Shown here: positions 1 through 56,013 of the stretch, one piece after another
Layout of the letters: the number at the start of each line of letters is the position of its first letter
Position numbering within the stretch: the first letter of the stretch is position 1
From: a virus
Reading direction: 5' to 3' (one strand)
Virus record (IMG/VR): IMGVR_UViG_3300035665_002545
Coordinates: 1 to 56,256 of that record
Length of the DNA stretch: 56,256 nucleotides
Notes under the pieces: generated by a model
Told to the model about the DNA's origin: nothing
Database searches by the model: none
What the model saw: only the letters and a program-made list of their open reading frames with translations
Position numbers and translations under genes: made by a program

Positions 1-72
1 CTCATGCTCAGGTTTGATGCCGGGAGAAAGAATTGCTTCATCAAGTTGTAAAAAGTTTTTGAAGTCTAACAT
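1..72 (-). CDS. Partial unknown phage protein, N-terminus only
   Basis: The minus strand opens with an ATG at 72-70 and stays open for 24 codons to the window edge, beginning MLDFKNFLQLDEAILSPG. A strong AAGGGGG ribosome site lies just before the start, and a TATAAATA late promoter box at 94-101 precedes it. The start codon and ribosome site lie in a perfect inverted repeat (70-93). The product cannot be named from 24 residues. The gene is probably late-expressed because its only visible promoter is of the late type. Confidence 0.6.
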   Translation of the reverse strand, partial: MLDFKNFLQLDEAILSPGIKPEHE

Positions 73-93
73 AGAAACCCCCTTGTTTCTATG
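70..93 (-). promoter_or_regulatory. RNA hairpin covering a start codon
   Basis: CATAGAAAC (93 to 85) and GTTTCTATG (78 to 70) form a perfect 9-bp stem closing a six-base loop AAGGGG. The 3' arm ends in the ATG start codon and the loop holds the ribosome site. RNA starting at the late promoter just upstream would begin near position 88 and lack most of the 5' arm, so only longer read-through RNA would fold fully. Confidence 0.6.
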
Positions 94-101
94 TATTTAT
101 A
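94..101 (-). promoter_or_regulatory. T4-type late promoter
   Basis: Perfect TATAAATA on the minus strand, followed by C as in the T4 late consensus. It lies 21 bases upstream of the ATG at 72. The predicted start, about six bases past the box, is an A near position 88. Confidence 0.6.
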
Positions 102-33178: not shown

Positions 33179-33714
33179 TCGTCAAAGTTCAGTCGCGGAC
33201 CTGGTTGTTCAGAAAGTTTTACACTTTTAGCTGCAAGAGACCTTCTATCAGGATCTATCTGATCAAGTTGTTTGCGTATGTAATCAAGAAGTTGTGTGCC
33301 CACCTCATCGTTATCACCCTCTTGAGTAATGATCTCATCTATGTTAATATTCTCAAGCATCTTATACTTTGTTGCTTGCTGCTTCTTCTCCTTTTGAATT
33401 CTGCGAATGAAAGCGAAGTAAACGATCTGAGTATAGTATGCGAATGGGTTGGATGACTTGGTATGATCAAACTTCTCTGCTGCAATCAGGCAGTTTTCGA
33501 TAGCATCAGATACCATATCATCTCTAAACGAATAGTTGATAAAGTTTCCCTTATATGCAAGGTGTGTTGCAATTTTGATGAAACACTCACCTATGTAGTT
33601 AGGAAGGATGGGTTTATCTCTTCCCTCGGCGACTGCCTCATTGCATGATGCCTTATAGGCAATCAAGGCATGAAGAAACTTCTCATTGTCTACATAATGC
33701 GCTGTCTTTTTCAT
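33175..33714 (-). CDS. 55: Late transcription sigma factor gp55
   Basis: A small, divergent sigma factor that directs host RNA polymerase to TATAAATA late promoters with the gp45 clamp. The 179-residue product (T4: 185) has region 2-like sequence DDMVSDAIENCLIAAEKFDHTKSSNPFAYYTQIVYFAFIRRIQKEKK, the core of the family. Its presence agrees with the late boxes across the window. The start shares TAATG with the preceding gene and AAAGGTGG lies upstream. The gene is followed by the queE promoter. Confidence 0.93.
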   Translation of the reverse strand: MKKTAHYVDNEKFLHALIAYKASCNEAVAEGRDKPILPNYIGECFIKIATHLAYKGNFINYSFRDDMVSDAIENCLIAAEKFDHTKSSNPFAYYTQIVYFAFIRRIQKEKKQQATKYKMLENINIDEIITQEGDNDEVGTQLLDYIRKQLDQIDPDRRSLAAKSVKLSEQPGPRLNFDD

Positions 33715-49758: not shown

Positions 49759-50718
49759 TCATCCTACAAAGAAATTAGTAGGTAGTTCAAATCTATCTTG
49801 CATCTCATCTTCTATCTTAAGTATTTCAGCTGTTGCTTCATCATAAATTTGTTGTCCATTAAGCACAACACCCCCAGGAAGTTGTACTCCCCCAAACTTC
49901 TTAAGATTGTTACCCCACTGTCTTTTCATTAGAGCCGTAGCATATCTTTTCAGAAACATGTCATTGTAGACATCTGTAAAGGTATTGGGGTCAAGAATTC
50001 TAAAGCAGTTGACTATTAGGTAATCATTTATTGAGACGTCTCTTTCCCAATCCATGTCTACATAAAGGCGATTCATGTGCCTATTAAACCTGAAGGGCTT
50101 TTCTCCGACTAATAATGTGTTGATTAAGCGGAGGTGGTTTTGAACCATGGTGTAGTGAATCATGTCTACAGACATTAGATTGTACAGGTCATTAACTAGC
50201 ATTTGATAGCGAATATCAAATAGATTGATGCCTGATGCTTTGTCATAGAAGGGTAGGACATTTTTGACACCAGTCACTGCGTCTGAAATGTCAAAGTAGC
50301 GATTGTCAAAGCTACCTTTACTGAAAGAAGAAACGGTTGCAGTAGCTCCTGATGTAGCCCCCGTTATTATTTCACCTACTGTGAATGATGCACCTTCGGG
50401 TGTTTTAAAGCAAAATAGTTTATTTCCTGAAGTTGGCACTTGTAAGATAGTTGAAAATACACCGGAGGTTGCACCTGTAACAACTTCATTATCTACAAAA
50501 GTATTAGCAACATTTGCAGAAAGAACTATATTTGACGCGGTTATTTGAGTCTTTAGATAAATTTCTTCTACAGCATCAAAGTGATACTCTCTGTAAAACT
50601 GAAATGCTTCATCGAGACGATCCTCAATTTGATCGTCATCGATATTAATCTCAATAACGGGATGACCTAGATTGCGTAAGCAATAGTCGGCGAGATCTTG
50701 TCTTGATGTAATAGCCAT
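49759..50718 (-). CDS. 13: Neck protein gp13 with a repeat insertion
   Basis: A 319-residue neck protein (T4: 309). LADYCLRNLGHPVIEINIDDDQIEDRLDEAFQFYREYHFDAVEE and WGNNLKKFGGVQLPGG fit gp13. Between about residues 60 and 140 is a stretch with two related repeats, VVTGATSGVFSTI (79-91) and IITGATSGATATV (117-129), of the kind seen in small surface domains of phage structural proteins. AAGGA, nine bases before the ATG, is held in an RNA hairpin that overlaps the late promoter. Confidence 0.93.
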   Translation of the reverse strand: MAITSRQDLADYCLRNLGHPVIEINIDDDQIEDRLDEAFQFYREYHFDAVEEIYLKTQITASNIVLSANVANTFVDNEVVTGATSGVFSTILQVPTSGNKLFCFKTPEGASFTVGEIITGATSGATATVSSFSKGSFDNRYFDISDAVTGVKNVLPFYDKASGINLFDIRYQMLVNDLYNLMSVDMIHYTMVQNHLRLINTLLVGEKPFRFNRHMNRLYVDMDWERDVSINDYLIVNCFRILDPNTFTDVYNDMFLKRYATALMKRQWGNNLKKFGGVQLPGGVVLNGQQIYDEATAEILKIEDEMQDRFELPTNFFVG

Positions 50719-50719
50719 A

Positions 50720-50755
50720 CCAGTCCTTATCTTTTTGAATATTTATAAAGACTGG
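50720..50755 (-). promoter_or_regulatory. Hairpin sequestering the gene 13 ribosome site
   Basis: On the minus strand CCAGTCTTTAT (50755-50745) and ATAAGGACTGG (50730-50720) form an 11-bp stem with one G-U and a 14-base loop. The 3' arm holds AAGGA, the ribosome site of gene 13. The late promoter lies across the 5' arm and loop, so late transcripts would start in the loop and leave the site free. Confidence 0.65.
50740..50747 (-). promoter_or_regulatory. T4-type late promoter of gene 13
   Basis: Perfect TATAAATA on the minus strand, 21 bases before the gp13 ATG, overlapping the 5' arm and loop of the hairpin at 50720-50755. The predicted start is an A near 50734. Confidence 0.8.
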
Positions 50756-50762
50756 GTTTTGG

Positions 50763-51599
50763 TTATTTTAGACCCATGGCTTGGCGAATTTTAGTGGCAC
50801 TAATACAATGAATATTGTCATCAAAAACTTCTTGCTCGATCTTATAGCCAACATCACGCCCATACGTAATATTAACTACATTAGGCACTACTAAAATTTC
50901 ATAACGACCTTGATAAAGGGGGTCTAAATCACGCCTAATGTAGTTTTTTACTTGTTCAATCGCAAACGGATTGCTATCATTCCACCCCTGGCAGTCACGA
51001 ATCATAATGCAAACTTGACCTGTTTTTTTCAGAGCTCTTTCAAAAAGCGCACGATGACCTTCATGCCAAGGTTGCCAACGACCTAACATTTGAACAGTTT
51101 CTTGCTTCCAGTCAAAGCGTGGACGGCGTTGTTCATTAACGATCCGTTCCCCCACATACTCAGCCCACCTTTCTGCATTTTTTTCTGTGATACGAAAGTC
51201 GTATATATCGGGAGGTATAAATGCCTTGTTAGTATCCTCGTATCTTCCTGCATCAATAGTATCCATCCAGATTGTCCAGTCAGCTTTGAAGTTATGGCGC
51301 ATCTCAGGAAGTGGAGCAATAAAATCACAAATTACATAATCTGTGCTTGATTCAAAAGCAAACTGCGCCATTCGAATACTTTGGCGTATTCTTCCCTCTC
51401 TAGAAAAGTCCCAGTCGTTGAACTTCTTACGAATTTCATCTGCGTTAAACCAAGTGACAGACGCATTGGGAAGCCGAGGGACCATCTCACGATTGAACCA
51501 ATCCATAGGAGGTACGCTTAGCTCGAGATACTTCTTAAGTTTTTCTGCAAGGTATGTCTTTCCTGATCCGGGGAGACCCATAACAAGAATTTTTTGCAT
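50763..51599 (-). CDS. APS-kinase-like/nucleotidyltransferase fusion
   Basis: A 278-residue, two-part enzyme. The N-terminal P-loop part has GLPGSGKT (8-15), an NADEIR-type motif (FNADEIRKKF) and ICDF, as in adenylylsulfate kinases. The C-terminal part, from about residue 170, has GRWQPWHEGH, the HxGH nucleotidyltransferase motif, and ISATKIRQ, its closing (S/T)xxR-type motif, with YGRDVGY between. The order kinase then transferase is that of animal PAPS synthases, although the second domain is much smaller. A sulfotransferase two genes upstream supports sulfate activation. The start at 51599 avoids overlap with the preceding small gene. Confidence 0.75.
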   Translation of the reverse strand: MQKILVMGLPGSGKTYLAEKLKKYLELSVPPMDWFNREMVPRLPNASVTWFNADEIRKKFNDWDFSREGRIRQSIRMAQFAFESSTDYVICDFIAPLPEMRHNFKADWTIWMDTIDAGRYEDTNKAFIPPDIYDFRITEKNAERWAEYVGERIVNEQRRPRFDWKQETVQMLGRWQPWHEGHRALFERALKKTGQVCIMIRDCQGWNDSNPFAIEQVKNYIRRDLDPLYQGRYEILVVPNVVNITYGRDVGYKIEQEVFDDNIHCISATKIRQAMGLK

Positions 51600-51600
51600 A

Positions 51601-51852
51601 TTACACCAAAGCTGCTTTTCCGTTTGCAATTGCGGCGGTTAGATCAGAAAGATCGCCACCGAGTTCAACAACTTTTGGATCTGCCATGACAATCTCCAGA
51701 TGGGCAACGTTTCTTTCAATGTTGCCACGACCTTCGTCGGTTAGTTCGCCGCGATCTGCTTTCTTCTGAAGTTCATCAGTAATAACCCAAACACTGTCAC
51801 GCGCTGCGCGAACGGTGCCATCTACTCTTTCTTGATCGGTTGGTTCTGTCAT
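51601..51852 (-). CDS. Small acidic-helical protein of unknown function
   Basis: An 83-residue protein starting MTEPTDQERVDGTVRAARDSVWV, predicted to be all helix, with DELQKKADRGELTDEGRGNIERNVAHLEIVM in its middle. AGGAGC lies seven bases before the ATG. It fits snugly between the sulfotransferase and kinase genes. I recognise no family and no catalytic motif. Confidence 0.6.
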   Translation of the reverse strand: MTEPTDQERVDGTVRAARDSVWVITDELQKKADRGELTDEGRGNIERNVAHLEIVMADPKVVELGGDLSDLTAAIANGKAALV

Positions 51853-51853
51853 T

Positions 51854-52807
51854 TTAAGCTCCTATGATACTTGAAGGTTCGTCGGTTGATTTAGGTGGTT
51901 CGGCATCAGGCTCGAACTCATCGGTTGGAATAGGATCATCGAGAGTTCTCCAAAACTCTGCATTCACACATTTAGATAGTGTTGCTTCAGAAAGAATTTC
52001 ATCAGGATTAATACCCCTACGACCCAAAGATTCTCTAACTTCATGCATGTCTGCCATGCCGTAAACTTCTGCATCACGTTCACGATGAATATTTTCAATC
52101 TTAGAAAAGTCATGCTCAAAGTATTCTTCACCCAAAAACTCATAAATCTTTTTCATAGTTTCTTCTGGCTTATCCATCAGATCACTATACTCGATGAAGT
52201 GTAACGACTTGAGATTACCTTCCATGATAGCTTGTTTGATTCCATTGTAGCTTTGACCCAGAATACCCATGGGGCTGGCAAGAAACTCACAACGATTGTC
52301 ATCAGTCAAAGGAACATTTGACTTAATCAACATTTCATCAATAAAGTTAATCTTTGCGCCGTCCTGTGTATAGGTGTTTCTGCGCTGCATGGCGATAAAC
52401 GAAGCAAGAATTTCCTTAATGTCTCGTACAGGACACAAAACTTTTGCTTCTACACCAAAGTAACCAGGAATGTAATGCAAACGGTTGACCCATGAACGAT
52501 TCTTATCGAAGATTACGGGTTTATCCACATCCGAGTAGTAGTTTTCCATAACCCCCGAAATAATCTTTGCCGCTTGTTGGGGTTTTGGATATGCCAGAAA
52601 CAATTCATCTTGCGACAAAGAGGTTTCAAGTGCAATCATGGTTGGGACTACAGGTGAACTAGGACCCGAGTAGAACCTAGGATTCTGATTAAGAATAGAA
52701 GAAAGCAATGTACTACCTGCGCGAGGCAATCCTGACATGAAGTAATACTTTTTCATGTTAGCTTTCATCATTTCTTCACGAATAATTTCTTTGATCATTT
52801 CTTTCAT
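51854..52807 (-). CDS. Sulfotransferase family protein
   Basis: A 317-residue protein with the 5'-PSB loop GLPRAGSTLL (26-35), which binds the phosphosulfate of PAPS, and VRDIKEILASF for the 3'-PB motif. IFDKNRSWVNRL lies between, as in prokaryotic sulfotransferases. It should pass sulfate from PAPS to a sugar or protein. A charged N-terminal helix precedes the domain and the C-terminus is rich in acidic residues and Pro. GAGG precedes the ATG. Confidence 0.85.
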   Translation of the reverse strand: MKEMIKEIIREEMMKANMKKYYFMSGLPRAGSTLLSSILNQNPRFYSGPSSPVVPTMIALETSLSQDELFLAYPKPQQAAKIISGVMENYYSDVDKPVIFDKNRSWVNRLHYIPGYFGVEAKVLCPVRDIKEILASFIAMQRRNTYTQDGAKINFIDEMLIKSNVPLTDDNRCEFLASPMGILGQSYNGIKQAIMEGNLKSLHFIEYSDLMDKPEETMKKIYEFLGEEYFEHDFSKIENIHRERDAEVYGMADMHEVRESLGRRGINPDEILSEATLSKCVNAEFWRTLDDPIPTDEFEPDAEPPKSTDEPSSIIGA

Positions 52808-52814
52808 AGTAACC

Positions 52815-53711
52815 TCATTGTTTGTCTACAGATGCAATGATTTTATTTATATCAAATAAATCTACATCTTCGGTGAAGGGATATTCAATCTCATTGCCAT
52901 TGAAGTCAAAGTCAAACAAGTAACTTCCTGGCAGTTTGAAGTCATACGGAATGTCGGTTGTGATATTGTCATGCATATCATAACCAAAAACTTTAGGACT
53001 TGTGCCATTCCACAAAACTGTTGACTTGCGCTTCATGGCAGCTGCTGCATGTTGCAAACTTGAATCAATCAGAATACGCTTTTTTGAATGCATAAGCAAA
53101 CTAAAAAACTCCATTAGCGATAGAGACTGCTGTGGTGTTGCATAAATGTGTTCAGCCCCATTTAGTTTGGGAGAGTTCAACTTAGTCACTTGAAAGATGT
53201 GATAATCTTTTTGATAGTGATTCACCAACTTTTGTGCTAGATCCGTGGGCATGTCGCGTGTCCATGCATAAGGTTTAGCATCAGTGGTCATCATTCCCCC
53301 GTTGGTATGAATAACCATGACAGGTTTCTTTCTTGCCCAAAACTGTTTTGACAAATCGAATTGCAGCTTATTAAACTTTACTGTGGGAGTTTCATTATTG
53401 TACTTCAATCCATACATCTCACACCAGTTTGGAATCAAACGCTTTCGCTTGTGAATGTGATTTGTAGTATAGTATGGTTCATGATGAAACAAAATGCTGT
53501 CTTTATCTTGAATGAATTCTTGATAGAAGTAACTAGTGTTGCCTAAGGTAAACACACGATCCACAAAAGGTAGATTGATGAAGATATCGGGGTATGCACA
53601 AACCACAACCAGTTTTCGGTCGGGATGATTGTTCTTGATGCATTGTGCTACGGCAGTTGCTGCAACATGTTTGCCAATTCCCCCTTGAAGGTGAAAAATG
53701 CTATATTTCAT
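52815..53711 (-). CDS. GT9-like glycosyltransferase
   Basis: A 298-residue protein starting IFHLQGGIGKHVAATAVAQCIKNNHPDRKLVVVC, a GT-B fold start as in ADP-heptose transferases (GT9), with MEFFSLLMHSKKRILIDSSLQHAAAAMKRKSTVLW near the C-terminus, where the sugar donor binds in this family. It probably adds a sugar to LPS or virion protein. Overlap with neighbours is small, and AGGAA precedes the ATG. Confidence 0.77.
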   Translation of the reverse strand: MKYSIFHLQGGIGKHVAATAVAQCIKNNHPDRKLVVVCAYPDIFINLPFVDRVFTLGNTSYFYQEFIQDKDSILFHHEPYYTTNHIHKRKRLIPNWCEMYGLKYNNETPTVKFNKLQFDLSKQFWARKKPVMVIHTNGGMMTTDAKPYAWTRDMPTDLAQKLVNHYQKDYHIFQVTKLNSPKLNGAEHIYATPQQSLSLMEFFSLLMHSKKRILIDSSLQHAAAAMKRKSTVLWNGTSPKVFGYDMHDNITTDIPYDFKLPGSYLFDFDFNGNEIEYPFTEDVDLFDINKIIASVDKQ

Positions 53712-53712
53712 T

Positions 53713-54435
53713 TCAAATTCCTATAGTTTTACGAATAATATCCCAGTTTCTCGCATTGAAGAAATGGTTGTACCGATAGACATTTTTAGTATCAAGATCG
53801 ATACGCTTTTGAATCTGACTCTTGATATCTTTAGAGATGATTGTCTTTGATATCTCGCCATGAATCTTGCTTGTCTTTAGTGTGTAGATGTTTTCACTAC
53901 GTTGTATCAGATAATCGTCACCGTACCACACCTGGTATAAACTAGGTATAACTCGATACGAAGATCGCTTGATAAACATACACACACCATAGGCATAACT
54001 TTGCCCACCAATAGGTTGTGACTTGTTTACATTCAGGCGGATAAGTTCTTCTTTCATGTCAGGATGATTTATAATGTGAAAGTTATCTACACTTCCTTTA
54101 AGATGCACACCAATGATATCTATCTGAGAGAAATCTAGTGAATGCATAAAGTTAAAAACATCATGTTCTACTTGAACATCATCATTAAGAAAGCAAATCA
54201 CATCTGCACATGAACGATAGTATCCTTCATTCCATGCAGGATTGACATAGATGTTCTTGCCATAGTTTATGATATGCAACTTTTCATGGGATACCAGATG
54301 CTTGGGCCTCTTTGCATAGTCATTGTCTATCAGATAGATGTTTGATATGCTATCACAGTCGCAATAGGTTTGCAATGCCTCTGGAAAGTTTTCATCCTTC
54401 CACATAGTAGGAATAACTAAGTCAATTTTTGTCAT
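53713..54435 (-). CDS. GT2-like glycosyltransferase
   Basis: A 240-residue protein with DLVIPTMWKDENFPEALQTY at the start, NPAWNEGYYRSCADVICFLNDDVQVEHDVF giving the D-D-x metal motif (about residues 80-90), and GVCMFIKRSSY and WYGDDYLIQR with acidic catalytic residues. It is a GT-A family 2-type enzyme of unknown substrate. It starts in an ATGA overlap with the upstream gene. Confidence 0.75.
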   Translation of the reverse strand: MTKIDLVIPTMWKDENFPEALQTYCDCDSISNIYLIDNDYAKRPKHLVSHEKLHIINYGKNIYVNPAWNEGYYRSCADVICFLNDDVQVEHDVFNFMHSLDFSQIDIIGVHLKGSVDNFHIINHPDMKEELIRLNVNKSQPIGGQSYAYGVCMFIKRSSYRVIPSLYQVWYGDDYLIQRSENIYTLKTSKIHGEISKTIISKDIKSQIQKRIDLDTKNVYRYNHFFNARNWDIIRKTIGI

Positions 54436-55379
54436 AGCGATATAATTGATCGTTTTTGAATAGAAAATCCAGACAGGATAGTTTTTAGAATCGAAGGATC
54501 ACTTGTTGCATTGCTGTGAAGATAGGTGCAAGGAAGGTTGGTCATGTGACAAGGATAACAGTCACTTGCTTTATTACTGAATGCTACAAATACTTTGTTA
54601 GGATTATTTATGTTGTCTTTTACATGAGTAAACATGAACGGTCCCGAGTTCTTTCCCACGATAGTCGAGCAATGCGTTGATAGGTATGCAATCTCGTTGA
54701 TATCATTTTCAAGATGAAAGATATCATCTGTAAACAAAACATTCTGCAGAGAGGTGTCAAACTTTTCTGTACAGATAAACAACTCATTAGGATTTGATGA
54801 TGCAAGAGAGTTTACAATGTTTTGCATGCTTCCTATTTGTGATTGGAAGCTTCTAACCTTTCCGTTGCAAAACAGATGCATTCTTTTGCCTTGTTCAGCA
54901 ATAGTTTGTACGGGGTTGATATCATACTTGTCCCATTTTATGCTAGGAACACAATCTAGAGGGTTTTGCGGTAGATCAATCTGGCACTTATGGTATGAGT
55001 TGAGATAATTGATAATGAACTGATACATTCGATGCAATGATCTATAGTTAGCATGATCTTCACCCGGTAGATTGATAATGTGGGTTGGAAAGTCAACCAC
55101 CCTATTCTGATTCTGATGAAAGTATGCACCAACCCATGTGTTAATGTAGATAGTTTTATCTGTTTCAAATATCTTACGATAGTTCAGAAAATCAACTTGA
55201 AGTTTGTTTAGATCCGGTTCAAATGTAATCTTTGTGAGATCAGAAACAATTTTGGGGTGATTCTTATGATAGTATCCGAACTTTGCATCAGGTATAGAAT
55301 CAATTATAAGTTTGATATAGCCTCTACCCGAAAACACATCGCCATTGTGCCATAGATTATAGAATAGTATGTTTTTCAT
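54432..55379 (-). CDS. Putative glycosyltransferase, paralogue of the gene at 15571-16476
   Basis: A 315-residue protein starting MKNILFYNLWHNGDVFSGRG. HLENDINEIAYLSTHCSTIVGKNSGPFMFTHVKDN is the same motif series as in the paralogue, ending with a shared GT-B-like donor region. That two copies exist 38 kb apart, one in each glyco cluster, suggests duplication within the phage and separate acceptors. It starts inside the preceding gene by 23 bases. Confidence 0.55.
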   Translation of the reverse strand: MKNILFYNLWHNGDVFSGRGYIKLIIDSIPDAKFGYYHKNHPKIVSDLTKITFEPDLNKLQVDFLNYRKIFETDKTIYINTWVGAYFHQNQNRVVDFPTHIINLPGEDHANYRSLHRMYQFIINYLNSYHKCQIDLPQNPLDCVPSIKWDKYDINPVQTIAEQGKRMHLFCNGKVRSFQSQIGSMQNIVNSLASSNPNELFICTEKFDTSLQNVLFTDDIFHLENDINEIAYLSTHCSTIVGKNSGPFMFTHVKDNINNPNKVFVAFSNKASDCYPCHMTNLPCTYLHSNATSDPSILKTILSGFSIQKRSIISL

Positions 55380-56013
55380 TTAGATCACGCTCAAAGTCAC
55401 CTTTGTACATCTTGGGTCCCATATGTGCAACAGTATGGGTGGGATTGATCCAAATTGTGTATCCCATCTCCATGAGCTTCCTACAAAGAAGAATATCTTC
55501 ACCTACAAATGAATCGTTTTGAAAACTATAGTCAAAAATGAGTTTTAGTTTCTTATTTCGAAAGAGAATTTCAGGATTCGATTCCCATAGATCATGAATA
55601 GCTTTCTTAGATAGCTTCATAAATCCTGTGCCTACTTTTTTGGTTTTAATATAACCATCATTATCCTGTTCTACATGAGCTTCTAAAAAGACATTATACT
55701 CAATCTTCTTATCACCTTTATTAACTACAGGAAGGCATACCACATCCTTAGGAGACATGAGAATGTCTATGAGTGCTTTGGGATCCCAATACTCATCATC
55801 ATCGATGAATACCATGCCATCATAATCTTGTTGATACGCCAGATTGATTAGTTCATTCCTAGCCATGGGCAGTATGCTCTCATTGGCTAGGAAGATTGCG
55901 TTTAAGGCAAGATCATGTTTTGCACATAATTTTATGGATTCACAAAGGCTATGCACATAATATGCATCAACCTTACCATATAAGCATGGAGTAGCTATCA
56001 AAATACGCTTCAT
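55357..56013 (-). CDS. GT-A-like glycosyltransferase, paralogue of the gene at 36073-36897
   Basis: A 218-residue protein with ILIATPCLYGKVDAYYVHSL, an NESILPMARN motif and FIDDDEYWDPKAL (about residues 73-85) as metal site, then VGTGFMKLSKKAIHDLWE. It shares the plan of the uvsY-linked gene but lacks its N-terminal extension. It directly follows the gene for a fibre-like protein and may modify it or the host surface. Confidence 0.7.
   Translation of the reverse strand: MKRILIATPCLYGKVDAYYVHSLCESIKLCAKHDLALNAIFLANESILPMARNELINLAYQQDYDGMVFIDDDEYWDPKALIDILMSPKDVVCLPVVNKGDKKIEYNVFLEAHVEQDNDGYIKTKKVGTGFMKLSKKAIHDLWESNPEILFRNKKLKLIFDYSFQNDSFVGEDILLCRKLMEMGYTIWINPTHTVAHMGPKMYKGDFERDLNEKHTIL

What the first reader, a model, noticed from the sequence alone, without database searches (positions are those of the whole stretch)
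50720..50755. Gene 13 ribosome site hidden in a hairpin that spans the late promoter
An 11-bp stem holds AAGGA in its 3' arm. The TATAAATA box covers part of the 5' arm, and the expected start near 50734 lies in the loop, so late RNA cannot form the stem. Read-through RNA would keep gene 13 silent. With the left-edge case this suggests a genome-wide device.
Basis: partly seen in the sequence, partly recalled or inferred. Interest (0 to 1): 0.6.

Follow-up and report, generated by a model that had tools for sequence, protein, structure and literature searches.

The report
Late-promoter hairpin masking gene 13 ribosome site
In an uncultivated T4-like phage, the ribosome site of a head-tail (neck) protein gene is predicted to be folded away in long read-through RNAs and open only in RNAs from the gene's own late promoter; this is a new case of a switch long known from phage T4 genes such as the lysozyme gene e, and it recurs at this gene in many relatives.

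Summary
The hairpin is real. On the minus strand, CCAGTCTTTAT (50755-50745) pairs with ATAAGGACTGG (50730-50720): 11 bp, one G·U, MFE -12.7 versus -4.9 for shuffles. The 3' arm holds the TAAGGA ribosome site of gene 13 (50718-49759, head-tail adaptor). The late-promoter box TATAAATA (50747-50740) enters the 5' arm, and the expected start (50734) lies in the loop. Predicted unpaired probability of the ribosome site is 0.00 in long RNA and 0.61 in late RNA; it is the most occluded of 41 gene starts tested. In the nearest relatives the stem letters change but pairing is kept (for example GCGCCC/GGGCGC, ATTCTCC/GGAGAAT). Arm swapping across 56 relatives gives p = 5e-5. Hairpin presence changes at least 10 times on the gene-13 tree. 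A search blind to gene identity returned gene 13 in 13 of 56 hits, against 0 of 30 for a permuted control. The window encodes a gp55-like late sigma factor. The mechanism matches T4 genes e, soc, 49 and I-TevI, so this is a new member of a known kind. The 'genome-wide' part fails: 43 other late promoters here and in relatives show no excess of such pairing. Function was not tested experimentally.

The parts
50745..50755 (-). 5' arm of hairpin, CCAGTCTTTAT
   Evidence: pairs with 50730-50720, 11 bp, one G.U
50740..50747 (-). T4-type late promoter box TATAAATA; first three bases lie in the 5' arm, the rest in the loop
   Evidence: gp55-like late sigma gene in the window
50731..50744 (-). 14-nt loop containing the expected late transcription start (about 50734, inferred)
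   Evidence: start position from the T4 convention, not mapped
50720..50730 (-). 3' arm ATAAGGACTGG containing the ribosome site TAAGGA (50729-50724)
49759..50718 (-). gene 13, head-tail adaptor (neck) protein, 319 aa
   Evidence: phrog_211 head-tail adaptor Ad2, E 7e-43; homologues annotated gp13 neck protein
50763..51629 (-). upstream co-oriented gene, kinase plus nucleotidyltransferase-like protein (NMN adenylyltransferase type, inferred); ends 7 nt before the hairpin, so RNA from it would carry the hairpin (start codon uncertain; searched from 51599)
33217..33714 (-). gp55-like late sigma factor gene
   Evidence: phrog_234, E 1.8e-60

Best explanation
A translational timing switch of the T4 gene e / I-TevI type. 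RNA that starts upstream and reads through into gene 13 (from promoters of the metabolic genes 50763-56013) carries both arms, so the hairpin hides the ribosome site and gene 13 is not translated. When the late sigma factor uses TATAAATA at 50747-50740, RNA starts in the loop, lacks the 5' arm, and exposes TAAGGA with a 16-nt leader, so the neck protein is made only from its own late promoter. Shown here: sequence, predicted fold, pairing conserved despite changing letters, recurrence at gene 13, and a late sigma gene in the same window. Inferred: the exact start site, the existence of read-through RNA, and the repression itself.
For: Fold and geometry. Ribosome site unpaired 0.00 long to 0.61 late; the same direction in L005, L006, L007, L008, L011, L013, L018 and L408; 16 of 56 gene-13 loci switch against 5.8 expected when upstream halves are swapped, p 1e-4. 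Stem letters turn over with pairing kept; swap test on all 56 loci with a promoter, own pairing -10.7 against -7.5 kcal/mol, p 5e-5. The window and its seven nearest distinct relatives all carry the hairpin, and hairpin presence changes at least 10 times on the whole gene-13 tree. Pattern TCCTTATAAATA-N(4-25)-AAGGA, blind to gene content, returns gene 13 in 13 of 56 hits with a gene start; the permuted control gives 0 of 30. The same method ranks T4 I-TevII, a gene for which this arrangement is reported, top in T4 (gene identity; PMC2988022). Known mechanism: PMC3014915 section 29 and PMC2988022 section 12.
Against: No transcript ends, read-through RNA or protein timing have been measured. Relatives with gene 13 directly behind a structural gene, or with a weaker promoter box, lack the hairpin (L015-L017, L020-L035, L042-L055), so it is not essential for gene 13. 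The link with the upstream metabolic gene (9 of 13 against 5 of 43, Fisher p 1e-4) is not significant after correction for ancestry (sign test p about 0.25).
Confidence: 0.85

Rival explanations
1. Chance: the late box supplies TTAT and the ribosome site supplies ATAAGG, so a short stem is almost built in, and the outer pairs are luck.
For: TATAAATA and TAAGGA are partly complementary by themselves; about 2.75 stems of 11 bp arise per shuffled window.
Against: Outer CCAGTC/GACTGG is not given by either motif; z -3.9; outer letters co-vary in relatives; swap p 5e-5.
Confidence: 0.03
2. DNA operator: a palindrome overlapping the late promoter that binds a repressor of gene 13 transcription, as I-TevI does at its own operator.
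For: The palindrome overlaps the promoter box; such operators exist in T4 (PMC2988022).
Against: Arm letters differ completely between relatives, unlike a protein site; the wobble pair is on the sense RNA and is an A.C mismatch on the other strand, which folds worse (-8.9 against -12.7).
Confidence: 0.04
3. Intrinsic terminator or RNA processing site between the metabolic genes and gene 13 rather than a translational lock.
For: It sits between a gene end and the next gene; the antisense side has some T-rich sequence in the window and L018.
Against: No T-run follows the stem on the sense strand; the T-rich antisense tract is absent in L011 and L408; the stem includes the ribosome site or start codon in each case looked at.
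Confidence: 0.06

Closest known systems
T4 gene e (lysozyme) leader hairpin
   Same: Late promoter encodes the 5' strand of a stem that hides the ribosome site in longer early RNA; late RNA lacks that strand (PMC3014915).
   Different: Gene e is a lysis gene with two late promoters; here a neck protein with one.
T4 I-TevI, I-TevII, I-TevIII, segB and Aeh1 mobE hairpins
   Same: Same promoter-in-hairpin layout on late genes embedded in early or middle units (PMC2988022); I-TevII was recovered by my scan.
   Different: Those are homing endonucleases; here a structural gene, in an uncultivated phage.
T4 genes soc and 49
   Same: Listed with e and I-TevI as having inhibitory structures at the translation start (PMC3014915); a gene-49-like endonuclease in L185 also carries this layout.
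   Different: Other genes; stem letters are unrelated.

Membership tests
T4-type late-promoter/ribosome-site hairpin switch | Ribosome site or start codon inside a stable RNA stem in long transcripts | tested here: met
   -12.7 kcal/mol predicted; site unpaired 0.00
T4-type late-promoter/ribosome-site hairpin switch | T4-type late promoter placed so that its RNA lacks the 5' arm | tested here: met
   TATAAATA 50747-50740; expected start in loop; late RNA site unpaired 0.61. Start not mapped.
T4-type late-promoter/ribosome-site hairpin switch | Phage encodes the late sigma factor (gp55) for this promoter | tested here: met
   window 33217-33714, E 1.8e-60
T4-type late-promoter/ribosome-site hairpin switch | Late gene embedded in a co-oriented transcription unit that is read through earlier | tested here: inconclusive
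   Upstream genes co-oriented, ending 7 nt before the hairpin; whether they are early or middle, and whether RNA reads through, is unknown
T4-type late-promoter/ribosome-site hairpin switch | Measured repression of translation from long RNA | not testable with these tools
   Needs reporter fusions or ribosome profiling
Genome-wide device at most late promoters of this phage | Excess pairing across the start site at other late promoters | tested here: not met
   43 promoters, 2 at rank 0.05 or less, KS p 0.21; T4 as positive control KS p 0.0045

The most novel reading that the evidence does not exclude
Across the T4-like superfamily, the fused anti-ribosome-site arm plus late promoter is a module that arises and decays repeatedly at a few structural genes (gene 13, the gene 5 hub lysozyme, a 111-aa phrog_1084 protein), in two forms that hide either the ribosome site or the start codon, following changes in the upstream gene neighbourhood.
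Probability: 0.5. Interest if true: 0.55.

Novelty: new member of a known kind. Interest (0 to 1): 0.42.

Why it matters
It extends a classic T4 regulatory trick from lysis and mobile genes to a virion neck gene in uncultivated phages, and gives natural compensatory changes that support the structure without experiments. The recurrence at gene 13 suggests a simple rule, testable in transcriptomes of cultured marine T4-like phages: when a structural gene lands behind genes expressed earlier, a late promoter fused to an anti-ribosome-site arm can shut out early translation.

Tried and rejected
MAFFT alignment of nine leaders misplaced the 3' arm of L018 and was off by one register for L011, so I used an alignment-free arm-swap test instead of column covariation counts. 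The link between hairpin and upstream NMN-adenylyltransferase-like gene looked strong but did not survive tree-based pairing. A search for TTATAAATA-N(11-24)-GGGACNGNNATGGC found only known relatives plus one further hit without the hairpin layout. The left-edge gene could not be traced in relatives: only 24 codons are in the window and tblastn gave chance hits. Absence of A.C mismatches in the stems is partly by construction (stems were chosen by sense pairing), so it is not used as a test on its own. Antisense terminator and DNA operator readings were considered and set aside.

Full report
What is there. Gene 13 is on the minus strand (50718-49759). Its 319-aa product matches phrog_211, head-tail adaptor Ad2, and its homologues in Pelagibacter phage HTVC008M and cyanophages are annotated as gp13 neck proteins. 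Its leader reads CCAGTCTTTATAAATATTCAAAAAGATAAGGACTGGTATG. RNA folding gives -12.7 kcal/mol against -4.9 for shuffles; RNA starting at 50734 has no such fold; the opposite strand folds less well (-8.9) because the G·U becomes an A·C mismatch.

Chance. Stems of this length occur by chance in a 56-kb window (2.75 hits per shuffle). The position is not chance: of 41 gene starts tested in the window, gene 13 has the most occluded ribosome site, 0.004 unpaired, the next being 0.18. TATAAATA is enriched and lies only on the coding strand, and the window encodes a gp55-like late sigma factor, so the box is a credible T4-type late promoter.

Relatives. Eighty viral contigs with gene 13 were fetched. 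The window and its nearest distinct relatives (L004, L005, L006, L007, L008, L011, L013), and a neighbouring branch (L018), carry the hairpin with different letters: CAGTCC/GGACTG, CGTCC/GGACG, GCGCCC/GGGCGC, ATTCTCC/GGAGAAT. Among phages where the same kinase/nucleotidyltransferase-like gene precedes a more distant gene 13, L408 has a 13-bp stem AGAATTTCCTCCA/TGGAGGAAATTCT, and L393 a 13-bp stem that hides the start codon and first codons instead. Because alignment of short leaders is unsafe, I swapped 5' and 3' halves between loci: on all 56 distinct gene-13 loci with a promoter-like box, own halves pair better than swapped ones (-10.7 against -7.5 kcal/mol, p 5e-5). Predicted switching (site or start codon under 0.1 open in long RNA, over 0.35 in late RNA) occurs in 16 of 56 loci against 5.8 expected from swapped upstream halves. 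These p-values do not correct for relatedness; on the gene-13 tree the hairpin label changes at least 10 times, so more than one ancestor is involved, though gains cannot be told from losses.

Search blind to gene content. The pattern TCCTTATAAATA-N(4-25)-AAGGA (anti-ribosome-site fused to the late box, then a ribosome site) was scanned over 2.9 million viral contigs, with a permuted 5' arm as control. Of the hits read, 56 of 81 real and 30 of 80 control hits have a gene start in place, and the length of real hits clusters at 21-24 nt. The real hits fall on gene 13 (13), the gene 5 hub lysozyme (13) and a 111-aa phrog_1084 protein (13), with tail tube, portal and a gene-49-like endonuclease among the rest; the control hits fall on none of the first three.

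Genome-wide claim. For late promoters other than gene 13 in the window, its relatives and HTVC008M, pairing across the start site does not exceed swapped controls (43 promoters, KS p 0.21). The same test on T4 does show an excess (KS p 0.0045; I-TevII ranks first), so the test can see the device. The left-edge site does predict a switch at its start codon but is a single further case.

Mechanism and precedent. In T4, genes e, soc, 49 and I-TevI hide their ribosome site or start codon in a helix; for e and I-TevI, late promoters next to the ribosome site give RNA lacking the 5' strand, and for e the structure lowers synthesis 100-fold (PMC3014915). The review of T4 mobile elements notes that genes so regulated are late genes lying on long transcripts of early and middle genes (PMC2988022). 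Gene 13 here fits: in T4 it follows wac in a structural run, whereas here it follows co-oriented metabolic genes, a kinase/nucleotidyltransferase-like gene and a sulfotransferase. Whether those genes are early is not known. The mechanism is therefore inferred by strong analogy plus conservation, not shown.

Verdict. Observation confirmed; timing-switch reading well supported; 'genome-wide' part not supported. It is a new member of a known kind, with a modestly new angle: recurrence on a neck gene and on two other structural genes, and an alternative form that hides the start codon.

Noticed in passing
window 70-101 (-): Late promoter TATAAATA 101-94 followed by CATAGAAAC/GTTTCTATG hairpin with the start codon in the 3' arm; late start would remove most of the 5' arm (AUG unpaired 0.00 to 0.49). 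Gene runs off the window after 24 codons.
   Followed up: partly
L144, L147, L158, L195, L202 and others: The baseplate hub lysozyme gene (gene 5) of viral contigs often carries the same anti-ribosome-site plus late-promoter layout.
   Followed up: partly
L142, L149, L178, L212 and others: A 110-112-aa protein (phrog_1084, related to a tail fibre assembly family) repeatedly carries the layout, often with an outer stem AACACA/TGTGTT beyond an internal loop.
   Followed up: partly
L185 304-813 (-): Endonuclease VII-like gene (gene 49 type) with stem GTAATTCCTT/AAGGAATTAC around the late promoter; T4 gene 49 is a known case of an inhibitory leader structure.
   Followed up: no
L383, L404, L407, L430, L449, L458: Gene 13 leaders where the start codon rather than the ribosome site is predicted to be hidden in long RNA.
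   Followed up: partly
window 49759-50718 (-), residues 71-132: Gene 13 product is 319 aa against about 250-275 in the blind hits; residues 71-132 weakly match a tail fibre family (phrog_9851, E 7e-4), possibly an inserted domain.
   Followed up: no
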